DNA from: Myxococcaceae bacterium
GTDB taxonomy: Bacteria; Myxococcota; Myxococcia; Myxococcales; Myxococcaceae
DNA length: 38,596 nt
Assembly (NCBI GenBank): GCA_003818285.1
Contig: RPRB01000024.1
Location: forward strand, 1-38,596
Direction of reading: 5' to 3'
Below the pieces are notes generated by a model. It was not told where the DNA came from. It saw only the letters and a program-made list of their open reading frames with translations, and did no database searches. The translations under genes and the position numbers were made by a program. Every line of letters begins with the position of its first letter. Within the stretch, counting starts at the first letter, position 1. This document shows positions 5,253 to 8,895 of this stretch, one piece after another.

Positions 5253-6242
5253 ATGACCTGGAACGCCACCGTCACAGCCCTGGCCGCAGTGAGCCTCGCT
5301 GGCTGTGTCACGGCGCACGGTCCCGGAGCGCTGACCCCGGACCCTGTGGAGGTCGTCCAGCTTCCCAGCAGCTGGGAGCCGGTGAAGCCCGAAGCCCCTG
5401 CCCGTCCGGCGCCGGTCCCTGCGCCGGCCGACGCGCCGATGACCTCGAGCCTGCTCCGGGCCCGCCTGGTGGCCTTCGTCCTCGAGGCGGAGGCCCGGCG
5501 GAGCGACGCCGAGCCCGGCTCGCCGATCCCGGAGTCGCAGCTCGGCGCCTGGGAGCGGATCCAGGGCGACGTGGAGCGGTTCCTGGCCGAGTCCCCGGGC
5601 GAGGGCGACGCCGAGGACGTCCAGGTGGCCCGGGGCTCGCTACGCGCCGCGCTCGACCGCGACGGGCAGGCCTACGGCGGCCTTCCTCCCGAGCTGGTGC
5701 GCTCCGTCGAGGAGCGGCTCGCCCTGCTCGATGCCCGGATGGGACCCCCGCCGGGGCCGCGGTTCCAGTGGCCGCTCGACGAGGTGAAGGTCACCAGCCG
5801 GTTCGGGAAGCGATTCCACCCCATCGCCCACCGCAAGAAGATGCACTCGGGGATCGACATGGCCGCCGAGCGCAACCAGCCGGTGCTGGCGGCCGGTGCC
5901 GGCATCGTGGTCCGCGCCGGCTGGATGCACGGCTACGGCTACGAGGTCACCATCGATCACGGCAATGGCCGGATGACTCGCTACAGCCATCTCGCCCGCA
6001 CCCTGGTGCTGGAGGGGACGCAGGTGGTGAGGGGGATGCCGCTGGGACTGGCCGGCCGGACCGGCACCGCCACCGGCGTGCACCTCCACTTCGAGTACTG
6101 GAAGGACGACGTCGCGCGCGATCCGCTGAAGGATTTCCAGAAGCTCGTTGGCGACCAGGGGCAGAAGCCGGTCGTGCTCAGCCGCCCGCCCCGGCGTCCC
6201 AAGACGGCCGTGGCGCGCAAGCCCGAAGGTCCGGGCGCCTGA
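5253..6242 (+). CDS. M23 family metallopeptidase lipoprotein
   Basis: Probable peptidoglycan endopeptidase or murein-hydrolase regulator exported as a lipoprotein (329 aa). ATG 5253 is chosen because it gives a lipoprotein signal with lipobox LAGC (Cys18); the frame is open back to 5148 but that extension would spoil the signal. A Pro-rich linker (about 45-62) leads to a helical region, then the M23/LytM domain (about 172-295). Zinc ligands are His198 and Asp202 (HSGID) and the HxH at 277-279 (GVHLHF), so the active site looks intact, unlike degenerate EnvC-type activators. The C-terminus is basic and Pro-rich. Its TGA overlaps the apparent CTG start of the next gene, suggesting translational coupling. 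Confidence 0.9.
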   Translation: MTWNATVTALAAVSLAGCVTAHGPGALTPDPVEVVQLPSSWEPVKPEAPARPAPVPAPADAPMTSSLLRARLVAFVLEAEARRSDAEPGSPIPESQLGAWERIQGDVERFLAESPGEGDAEDVQVARGSLRAALDRDGQAYGGLPPELVRSVEERLALLDARMGPPPGPRFQWPLDEVKVTSRFGKRFHPIAHRKKMHSGIDMAAERNQPVLAAGAGIVVRAGWMHGYGYEVTIDHGNGRMTRYSHLARTLVLEGTQVVRGMPLGLAGRTGTATGVHLHFEYWKDDVARDPLKDFQKLVGDQGQKPVVLSRPPRRPKTAVARKPEGPGA

Positions 6243-7711
6243 TCCCGAGGGCCGCGTCCCTTCTCGCCCTGGGCGCGCTGGGCTGCGGCGCCTGCTCCTC
6301 CGTCGTTCCACCCGCCGCCGCCGCTCGCCCGGAGGTCGCCGTCGTGACTCCCGACGCGGGCGTGGTCCCGGAGCGGTTCGTCGACGCCTCGGCCCCTCCG
6401 GGAGGTGACGGGAGCCGTGCGCGGCCGTTCCGGTCTCTCGCGGAGGCCCCGGCCCACGGGCGGCTGCGGCTGGTCTCGGGAATCTACCCGGGCGGAGTGC
6501 TCCTCGAGGACGTGGAGCTCGTCGGAGGACCGGCGGTGGTGCTGGCCGCGACTCCGCCGGCGACGTGCATCCGCAGCCGCGGCACGGTGCGCCTCGAGCA
6601 GGTGCAGATCCAGGGTGGGGCAGCCGGGGTGGTGGTCGAGCGCGGACGGACCACGCTCGCCTCGGTGTCCCTCAGTGGTCAGCGCGGCCCGGCGGTGGAG
6701 GTGGGCGCCGGGGCGGAGGTCGTCGTCACTGGCTCCACGTTCCAGGCCTCGGTCTCGTCCTTCCCCGGGATGCGCGTGCTCCCGGGAGGAAAGGCCGACC
6801 TCGGGCAGGTGCGCTTCCAGGGACCCTTCCGGCGTGCGGTGGACGCGACGGGGCCGGCAGCTCTTCGACTGGTAGGAGTGCAGGTCCAGGACGCGGTCAC
6901 GGGCCTCTGGCTCTCGGGCGGAGCGGCACACGTCGAGTCGATGGAGGTGCGCGGCGGCCGCGGCCCCGGGATCTACGTCGCCGGCGGGACGCTGCACCTG
7001 CGGGACGTCCGCATCGGCGGACACGAGTACGGCCTGCTCACCGGCGAGGGCGCGCGCGTCGACGGCCGCGGCCTGCGCTCCGCCGGCGCGGAGCGTGCCG
7101 GGTTCGCCCTCGTCAAGAGCAAGGGAACGCTGGAGGACGTCCACGTCGAATCCGCCGGTCCCATGGGCGCGGTGCAGCTCATCGCCTCCGAGGTGCGCAT
7201 CCGCGGGCTGGAGGTGGAGGGCGGCCGCTCGTCGGGCCTGGTGACCCGGAACGCCCAGGTCACGCTCGAGGGTGGAACGTTCCGGGGCCCGCGCGCCACC
7301 GATCCGGACGAGGGCGACGCGGTGCAGATCCGGGGAGGTGGGGCCACGCTCGGCGGCCTCCGGATCCAGGACTGCAGTGGCATCGGGATGCTCGCCGCCG
7401 ACGGGGCGTCGGTGACGATCGCCCGGAGCACCGTGAGCGGCGCGGCGGTGGCAGGGCTGGCAGTGGAGACGGAGGCCACCCTCACCGCCACCGAGGTGTC
7501 CATCGAGCGGACCGCCGGCCCGGCGGTGCTGGCGACCTCGCGCGGGAGGGCACGACTGCGGTCGATGACTGCCCGGACGAACCGCGACGGCCCGCTGTGG
7601 GCCGAGTGCAGCCAGGGCGTGGACGTGGAGATCGACGGCTGGACGGGCGATGTGTCGCCGGTGCGGGCGCCCTGCGTCCACGGCGCATGGGCGATCACCC
7701 CGCGGCGCTGA
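6239..7711 (+). CDS. Parallel beta-helix (pectate-lyase-like) lipoprotein
   Basis: About 490 aa made of short repeats with alternating small hydrophobic and Gly residues, as in right-handed parallel beta-helix proteins (NosD/pectate lyase fold). No catalytic residues can be named, so it may be a structural surface or periplasmic protein. The start is uncertain. No ATG, GTG or TTG lies in frame close upstream, but CTG at 6239 overlaps the preceding TGA (CTGA) and begins a signal-like stretch, LIPRAASLLALGALGCGAC, with a lipobox-like Cys16 or Cys19. GTG 6344, eight bases after GGAGG, is the alternative and would give a leaderless protein. Four scattered Cys follow. Coupled to the M23 gene, so an envelope role is inferred. 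Confidence 0.75.
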   Translation: MIPRAASLLALGALGCGACSSVVPPAAAARPEVAVVTPDAGVVPERFVDASAPPGGDGSRARPFRSLAEAPAHGRLRLVSGIYPGGVLLEDVELVGGPAVVLAATPPATCIRSRGTVRLEQVQIQGGAAGVVVERGRTTLASVSLSGQRGPAVEVGAGAEVVVTGSTFQASVSSFPGMRVLPGGKADLGQVRFQGPFRRAVDATGPAALRLVGVQVQDAVTGLWLSGGAAHVESMEVRGGRGPGIYVAGGTLHLRDVRIGGHEYGLLTGEGARVDGRGLRSAGAERAGFALVKSKGTLEDVHVESAGPMGAVQLIASEVRIRGLEVEGGRSSGLVTRNAQVTLEGGTFRGPRATDPDEGDAVQIRGGGATLGGLRIQDCSGIGMLAADGASVTIARSTVSGAAVAGLAVETEATLTATEVSIERTAGPAVLATSRGRARLRSMTARTNRDGPLWAECSQGVDVEIDGWTGDVSPVRAPCVHGAWAITPRR

Positions 7712-7788: not shown

Positions 7789-8895
7789 TCAGCCCGGCCG
7801 GTGTCCGCTGTCCGCGCTCGGCATCGGAGAGGCCCGGTCCGACACCCAGCGGAGAATCCGCGGGTAGACCTCCAGCGGCGCGTTCTCGCCGAAGAGGAGA
7901 TCGCCGTGCCCGTACTCGAGGGTATCGCCGTTCTCGCGCCCGAAGAGCATCACCGTCTTGTCGTCCGAGGCGAGCAGCTGCGCCTGTCCGAGCACTGCCT
8001 GGGGCGTGGCCAGCGCGTCCTGGCTCCCACCCATGACCAGCGCCGGGGTCGTGACCCGGCGGAGCCGCTCCCGGTAGTCGACGCGGCCGTCACGGCTGCG
8101 GAACGCGTCGTTGCTGCTCCAGTCGTCCAGCTGGCGCAGCAGGCGGTACCCCATCGAGGAGACCAGGTTGCAGTACATCTTTCGCAGCACGCGCGGGGCG
8201 ATCGCCTGGGGGTTGATGAGAACCTCGGTGAGCGGAAGGGGGACGCGCCCGAGGAACGGAGCGAGCGCGATGCTCAGCCATCGCTGCCGCAAGGCGAGCG
8301 GCCAGGCCAGACCCAGCGCCAGCCGCGACAGCCGGACCACCCATCCGGTGTAGCGGAAGAAGACCGGCGCCCCGAGCGCGCAGATGCCCTGGATGCGGCC
8401 TCCGTGCGGGCCGCCGAGGACTCCGTAGCCCACCAGTGCTCCCAGCGAGTGTCCCACCCAGAACGCCCGGCGGGCGCCGGTGCGCTCGAGGACGTGGGCG
8501 AGGAAGGCGGGTCCGTCCTCGGCGATGAGGTCGTCGGCGTCGAACAGGAAGCGCTGCCACGGGCGGCGGGCCCGGGAGGCGCCGGCGCCTCGCCAGTCCA
8601 CGCTGAAGACCTCGAAGCCGGCGGCGGCGAACACGTGCGCCAGGGAATGCGGAGGGTCGAAATCGAAGTTGACGTGATTGGCGGCAAGACCGTGACAGAG
8701 CAGCACCGGCTCGAGAAAGCGTCGGACCTCCGGGCGGCGGCGGTGAACGGCGAGGAGCGTCCCGTCCGGGGTCTGGACCCATTCCAGCTCCGGGCGTGCG
8801 CTTCGCAGCCGGTAATATGTGCGGACGGCGACCAGGTAGGCCCCGACCGCCAGGACCAGCAGGACCCCCGTGACGACGGCCCGGGCAGGGTCCAT
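7789..8895 (-). CDS. Membrane-anchored alpha/beta hydrolase
   Basis: A 368-aa serine hydrolase of unknown substrate. An N-terminal hydrophobic segment (about 7-24) should anchor it to the inner membrane. The alpha/beta fold follows, with the oxyanion-region HG at 68-69, nucleophile Ser150 in GHSLG, probable acid Asp293 (GSQDALATP) and His330 (EYGHGDLLFG). The strand after the anchor (LLCHGLAANHVNFDF) and the size resemble lipase- or poly(3-hydroxyalkanoate) synthase-like hydrolases. PhaC synthases use Cys as nucleophile, so Ser150 argues against a synthase. It is divergent from pssA; 71 bp separate the two start codons. The C-terminal tail is Ser/Pro-rich. Confidence 0.88.
   Translation of the reverse strand: MDPARAVVTGVLLVLAVGAYLVAVRTYYRLRSARPELEWVQTPDGTLLAVHRRRPEVRRFLEPVLLCHGLAANHVNFDFDPPHSLAHVFAAAGFEVFSVDWRGAGASRARRPWQRFLFDADDLIAEDGPAFLAHVLERTGARRAFWVGHSLGALVGYGVLGGPHGGRIQGICALGAPVFFRYTGWVVRLSRLALGLAWPLALRQRWLSIALAPFLGRVPLPLTEVLINPQAIAPRVLRKMYCNLVSSMGYRLLRQLDDWSSNDAFRSRDGRVDYRERLRRVTTPALVMGGSQDALATPQAVLGQAQLLASDDKTVMLFGRENGDTLEYGHGDLLFGENAPLEVYPRILRWVSDRASPMPSADSGHRPG

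What the first reader, a model, noticed from the sequence alone, without database searches (positions are those of the whole stretch)
6239..6346. Probable CTG start in a CTGA stop-start overlap hides a lipoprotein signal
The beta-helix gene has no nearby ATG, GTG or TTG that retains the signal-like stretch LIPRAASLLALGALGCGAC. CTG 6239 overlaps the M23 TGA by four bases, in the same way as common ATGA or GTGA coupling, and AAGG lies eight bases upstream. Standard gene callers would start at GTG 6344 (which has its own GGAGG) and delete the signal, turning a lipoprotein into a cytoplasmic protein.
Basis: partly seen in the sequence, partly recalled or inferred. Interest (0 to 1): 0.55.

Follow-up and report, generated by a model that had tools for sequence, protein, structure and literature searches.

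The report
Hidden CTG start restores export signal
A bacterium known only from a draft genome appears to begin one of its exported proteins at the rare codon CTG, overlapping the stop of the gene before it, so ordinary gene-finding would cut off the export signal and misplace the protein inside the cell.

Summary
The M23 gene ends at TGA 6240-6242, CTG 6239 overlaps it, and the beta-helix frame then reads LIPRAASLLALGALGCGAC; the nearest in-frame ATG/GTG/TTG upstream is 157 codons away. The CTGA overlap alone is chance-level (329 of 808 gene ends in a 1.02 Mb sample), so it is not the evidence. The evidence is comparative. The only congener held has the same CTGA overlap and no standard start before a GTG inside the conserved core. 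Of 42 scored family loci, 40 have a standard start at a hydrophobic signal and 36 a lipobox-type cysteine. Of 66 lipobox-bearing genes in the own-genome sample, only this one lacks a standard start. In 36 of 37 relatives with a value the two genes lie 397-1036 nt apart; in one, 31-55 nt; in this genus they overlap by 4 nt. A deletion that removed the old start, with coupling rescuing CTG (or the adjacent ATC), fits. 'Lipoprotein' fits this genome but not the congener, whose signal has no cysteine. The rival GTG 6344 has a good Shine-Dalgarno in this genome only. Two further genes in the genus look similar; that part is tentative. The exact start codon is inferred, not shown.

The parts
5253..6242 (+). 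M23 peptidase gene, itself with a lipoprotein-like N-terminus (MTWNATVTALAAVSLAGC, by eye); its stop TGA is 6240-6242
   Evidence: PF01551 E 1.5e-28; congener 80% identical
6225..6229 (+). GAAGG, weak Shine-Dalgarno-like stretch, 9 nt before CTG; GAGGG at the same place in the congener
   Evidence: also codes for Glu-Gly of M23, so its conservation is not independent
6239..6241 (+). proposed CTG start codon, overlapping TGA in CTGA
   Evidence: same CTGA in congener L002 1450
6242..6244 (+). ATC, alternative non-standard start directly after CTG, also conserved in the congener
6239..6295 (+). signal peptide LIPRAASLLALGALGCGAC; lipobox ALG-C with Cys 6284-6286; second Cys 6293-6295
   Evidence: lipobox pattern recalled from PROSITE PS51257
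6239..7711 (+). beta-helix gene as proposed, 490 aa
   Evidence: PF13229; matches in 41 of 60 genomes, own genome included
6331..6335 (+). GGAGG upstream of the rival start GTG 6344
   Evidence: 187 of 11847 internal GTG codons in the sample have GGAGG at such a distance
6344..6346 (+). rival start GTG, which would delete the signal

Best explanation
The beta-helix gene is translated from a non-standard start at the M23 stop, most likely CTG 6239, by termination-reinitiation or local re-binding of the ribosome at the CTGA overlap. The product carries an N-terminal export signal ending in a lipobox in this genome, so it is exported and probably lipid-anchored like most family members. In the ancestor of this genus a deletion closed the gap that most relatives have between M23 and the beta-helix gene, removing the original start; coupling to M23 translation then made the weak CTG sufficient. 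Shown: the sequence arrangement, its presence in the congener, the family-wide start plus signal, the spacing in relatives. Inferred: the deletion, the start codon, coupling, export and lipidation.
For: Congener G001 (65% identical beta-helix) has the same CTGA overlap and no ATG/GTG/TTG from the start of its open frame (L002 1363) to GTG 1537 inside the core motif F-VDAS; two different genomes agree, so an assembly error is unlikely. Read from CTG to that core, the two leaders differ by a net 18 codons (54 nt), a multiple of three. Both have Arg then a hydrophobic stretch (hydropathy 1.99 and 2.05). 40 of 42 scored loci have a standard start at a signal, 36 with lipobox-type Cys; M23 stop to start is 397-1036 nt in 36 of 37 with a value and 31 nt to the first GTG, 55 to the next TTG, in G021. 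1 of 66 lipobox-like genes in the own-genome sample lacks a standard start. Leader codon score 0.3 over 35 codons lies within the 65 others (10th and 50th percentile -3.7 and 2.7), and the other two forward frames of 6239-6343 score -10.1 and -9.2 against -0.6.
Against: Codon-usage onset of the gene falls at 6332, close to GTG 6344, not at CTG, although 17% of the 65 other lipobox genes have an onset as late. The best reverse-strand frame of 6239-6343 scores 2.3, above the leader's -0.6. GTG 6344 has a perfect GGAGG at 8 nt, a 1.6% coincidence for an internal GTG. Signal residues are poorly conserved between the two species, and diffs by codon position over CTG-to-core (14, 9, 20, core included) do not single out the leader as coding. 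CTG starts are very rare: 2 of 61,358 reconstructed AUG starts switched to CUG (PMC5622118, passage). A Caulobacter dnaA CUG seen by toeprint was not used in vivo (PMC8443254, passages).
Confidence: 0.72

Rival explanations
1. A non-standard start is used, but it is ATC 6242 (also conserved) rather than CTG 6239. The biology is the same; only the initiating codon differs.
For: CTGATC is identical in both congeners. In another gene of the genus (P0002) an ATC with AGGA 7-8 nt upstream is common to both species, while the CTGA overlap is in frame in only one.
Against: ATC does not overlap in the usual NTGA manner and is, from recall, a weaker start than CTG.
Confidence: 0.12
2. The real start is GTG 6344 and the beta-helix protein of this species is cytoplasmic; the signal-like stretch is a remnant.
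For: Good GGAGG at 8 nt and codon-usage onset at 6332.
Against: The congener has no GTG there and would have to start inside the conserved core. All 40 loci with an identifiable start have a hydrophobic signal. A signal and lipobox exactly in frame would be coincidence.
Confidence: 0.1
3. Minus-one frameshifting at the end of M23 makes an M23-beta-helix fusion.
For: The frames are related by -1 and the beta-helix frame is open upstream to 5132.
Against: No slippery heptamer by eye at GGTCCGGGCGCCTGA. The two are separate genes, 397-1036 nt apart in 36 of 37 relatives with a value.
Confidence: 0.03
4. Assembly or sequencing error hides a standard start.
For: Draft assembly of 502 contigs.
Against: The same CTGATC and the same absence of starts in a second genome.
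Confidence: 0.03

Closest known systems
Four-base NTGA stop-start overlaps with translational coupling (PMC10666635, passages; review PMC12548453, passages)
   Same: Stop and start share TG; the downstream gene is in the -1 frame. The review calls NTGA the most common spacing motif. Reinitiation is local: in the passages about 20 nt almost abolishes it, and in E. coli 38 nt cuts it by 80-90% or abolishes it.
   Different: The start is CTG. CTGA and CUG do not occur in the main text of PMC10666635, nor CUG in that of PMC12548453.
Bacterial genes reported to start at CTG: plasmid repA, ano, Deinococcus deserti rpsL (as told in PMC5960689, passages)
   Same: CTG read as start in bacteria.
   Different: Those are reported with experimental support; here it is inferred from comparison. 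An NTGA overlap is not mentioned for them in the passages read.
M23 - beta-helix - pssA neighbourhood of this family of bacteria
   Same: Within loci with 1.5 kb flanks, M23 was found beside the beta-helix gene in 23 of 29 other loci and pssA in 17 of 29.
   Different: In this genus the two first genes overlap and the downstream standard start is gone.

Membership tests
Four-base stop-start overlap (NTGA coupling) | Downstream start codon overlaps upstream TGA by 4 bases' span, -1 frame | tested here: met
   CTGA 6239-6242 and in congener, if CTG is the start
Four-base stop-start overlap (NTGA coupling) | Downstream translation depends on upstream translation | not testable with these tools
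   needs reporter work
Genes with CTG start | No ATG/GTG/TTG that keeps the N-terminal signal | tested here: met
   both congeners
Genes with CTG start | Initiation at CTG demonstrated | not testable with these tools
   ATC 6242 not excluded
Bacterial lipoprotein | n-region charge, hydrophobic stretch, lipobox Cys | tested here: met
   window, PROSITE-like pattern recalled; the -3 residue Ala is not the strict LVI form
Bacterial lipoprotein | Cys kept in closest relative | tested here: not met
   G001 has a signal without Cys; so lipoprotein is claimed for this genome only, as probable
Right-handed beta-helix protein | PF13229 above curated cut-off | tested here: met
   52.1 bits against 25.9

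The most novel reading that the evidence does not exclude
This genus has a relaxed start-codon rule at gene overlaps: several genes whose standard starts were lost by compaction begin at CTG (or ATC) at or near the upstream stop, and routine annotation truncates them. Two further candidates exist in both species held: a CoA-transferase family III gene (L136 CTG 10305; L161) and a membrane protein (L110 CTG 15188 minus strand; L168).
Probability: 0.3. Interest if true: 0.65.

Novelty: new variant of a known kind. Interest (0 to 1): 0.47.

Why it matters
If true, coupling to an upstream gene can keep a gene alive after it loses its normal start, by making a codon that is almost never a start good enough. 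It also means gene callers limited to ATG/GTG/TTG can turn exported proteins into false cytoplasmic ones in GC-rich compact genomes, and gives a simple test set (CTGA overlaps with an N-terminal signal) for finding more.

Tried and rejected
CTGA overlap as evidence: rejected, because 329 of 808 gene ends in the sample are C-TGA. Frameshift fusion and assembly error: rejected as above. A start at GTG 5768, the nearest upstream in frame, would run 157 codons through M23 and was not pursued. RNA structure around either start: nothing beyond shuffles (z 1.01, 1.79, -0.40). Altered initiator tRNA as a cause (a stem variant of tRNA-fMet relaxes CUG discrimination in vitro, PMC11497404, abstract and passages): not decidable. 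No intact initiator-type tRNA gene was found in G000 or G001 with the patterns and query used, only a 3' half in G000; draft gaps are the likely reason. Structure prediction was not run, since it does not bear on the start codon. Papers: in the listings of searches (titles and abstract beginnings) I saw no report of a CTGA coupled start; one search (CUGA, start codon, translational coupling) held 0 papers. Of search 59's 7 papers, 3 of the 4 with the string CTGA were opened at passages, and it lies in primers or promoter sequences; PMC5683015 was not opened. The library is open-licence PMC only, so this is weak evidence of absence. PMC4648390 (passages) concerns animal cells and is not used.

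Survey caveats: the gene finder is my own and simple, and 44,902 of the 1,021,326 sample bases are N. Thresholds were chosen after looking. In one search delta of 36 nt or more was seen in CTGA 6 of 42, the two other phases 2 of 104, ATGA 1 of 54, GTGA 1 of 53, TTGA 2 of 12, GTAG 1 of 5, and genes without a close upstream gene 48 of 454. The window gene is not in that CTGA class because its codon onset lies 93 nt after the CTG. Some of the six are probably false. In one search, 48 loci were given (matches existed in 41 of 60 and 74 of 96 genomes); 6 were not scored (L001, L002, L004, L018, L020, L069), and 2 scored ones (L011, L023) had no usable start because of a contig end or misplaced match. 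A start was sought in 39 codons, a wide net. The 36 with Cys include L028 and L072, whose Cys lies inside the hydrophobic stretch and is doubtful, and leave out L074, L076, L079, whose Cys follows Thr. Spacings are to the last standard start in that net and so are approximate. In one search the 'M23 tail' block was misframed for the congener and is not used.

Full report
What is there. The window is contig C49 of an unnamed draft genome, 5.77 Mb in 502 contigs. Around 5.2-7.7 kb lie an M23 peptidase gene (PF01551) and a right-handed beta-helix gene (PF13229). The M23 gene ends at TGA 6240-6242. The beta-helix frame runs open through this point from 5132, and reading it from CTG 6239 gives LIPRAASLLALGALGCGACSS. 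The nearest in-frame ATG/GTG/TTG upstream is GTG 5768, 157 codons away; the next downstream is GTG 6344, which has GGAGG 8 nt upstream.

Is it more than chance? The overlap itself is not: in a 1.02 Mb sample of the same genome 329 of 808 called genes end in C-TGA, and 52 adjacent pairs have the downstream frame open through a CTGA. Nor is a stretch without start-like codons: 898 of 7039 blocks of 34 codons inside genes have none. The combination is. Of 66 genes in the sample with a charged n-region, hydrophobic stretch and lipobox, 65 have a standard start 12-45 codons before the Cys; the one without is this gene. Reading from gene stops, signal plus lipobox turned up in 11 of 804, 2 of 804 and 4 of 803 cases for three registers; 9 of the 11 sit at ATGA, GTGA or TTGA and look like ordinary coupled lipoproteins. 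A signal without asking for Cys, as in the congener, turned up in 47, 18 and 10.

Comparison. The genus holds one other genome, G001. Its beta-helix gene is 65% identical. It has the same CTGA overlap, 17 identical bases GGTCCGGGCGCCTGATC across the junction, and no standard start between the preceding in-frame stop and a GTG inside the core motif FVDAS. Its leader, LIARGLLRVALGTFLVAG, is charged and hydrophobic but has no Cys. The leaders differ by a net 18 codons. In the wider family I scored 42 of 48 fetched loci: 40 have a standard start at a hydrophobic stretch, 36 with a lipobox-type Cys; the two without a start are cut by a contig end or misplaced. The family rule is therefore an exported, mostly lipid-anchored beta-helix protein, and a start at GTG 6344 would break it.

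How it arose. M23 lies beside the beta-helix gene in 23 of 29 other loci and pssA in 17 of 29, within 1.5 kb flanks. The distance from M23 stop to beta-helix start is 397-1036 nt in 36 of 37 loci with a value. The exception is G021, the best match outside the genus: 31 nt to its first GTG, 55 nt to the next TTG. In this genus it is -4. A deletion that removed the spacer with the old start is the simplest account (inference). Published reporter work shows that reinitiation is very local (PMC10666635, passages), which suits a start at the stop itself, and a review names NTGA as the commonest spacing motif (PMC12548453, passages).

Against. CTG starts are rare: in one reconstruction 2 of 61,358 AUG starts became CUG (PMC5622118, passage). 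A CUG in Caulobacter dnaA seen by toeprint is not used in vivo (PMC8443254, passages). On the other side, plasmid repA, ano and Deinococcus rpsL are cited as CTG starters (PMC5960689, passages). Codon usage turns on at 6332, near GTG 6344, but 17% of 65 other lipobox genes show as late an onset, and the leader's score lies within theirs; one reverse-strand frame of the leader scores higher (2.3 against -0.6). GGAGG before an internal GTG occurs in 187 of 11847 cases, so it is an uncommon coincidence, and a second product from GTG 6344 cannot be excluded. ATC 6242 is conserved as well and cannot be told from CTG.

Is it alone in the genus? In the sample, 6 of 42 downstream genes in the CTGA class have a codon-usage onset at least 36 nt before the first standard start, against 2 of 104 in the two other phases, but 48 of 454 genes with no close upstream gene, so this survey is suggestive only. 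I followed two with orthologues. (a) A CoA-transferase family III gene (PF02515 begins at residue 15): both species have CTGA and then a conserved GLPL-x-GVRVLDL, the first standard start being a GTG inside it, while all six other relatives searched have a standard start just before the motif (ATG in G021, G015, G011; GTG in G010; TTG in G012 and G024). The GTG is kept in both species, so it remains a possible start. (b) A membrane protein found in G001 only of 7 genomes searched: WLRRHRA is conserved with four synonymous codon changes upstream of the first standard start in both species, which points to translation of that stretch; but the CTGA is in frame only in G000, and the start shared by both may be an ATC. 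These make repeated non-standard initiation in the genus plausible, not established.

Verdict. The reading of a hidden signal behind a non-standard start at the overlap is well supported; CTG is the most likely codon; lipoprotein is probable for this species and fits most of the family, but not the congener.

Noticed in passing
L136 10305-11453 and L161 about 1492: CoA-transferase III gene with CTGA overlap in both congeners; the first standard start is a GTG within the conserved GVRVLDL; six of six other genera searched have a standard start just upstream of the motif.
   Followed up: partly
L110 13710-15188 (minus) and L168 about 1490-1560: Membrane protein whose conserved WLRRHRA lies upstream of the first standard start in both species; the candidate shared start may be ATC.
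   Followed up: partly
L172 about 1503-1549 (G000:C217): 3' half of an initiator-type tRNA-Met without its 5' half, which may be an attachment site of an integrated element; no intact copy found in G000 or G001.
   Followed up: partly
window 7992-8066: ARAGORN calls a tRNA-Gly (ccc) on the plus strand inside the alpha/beta-hydrolase-like gene on the minus strand; probably false.
   Followed up: no
L115, minus strand, near the gene stop listed: Leader AERAAQALALGLVLVVGGCKPSW read across a CTGA stop in the -2 register.
   Followed up: no
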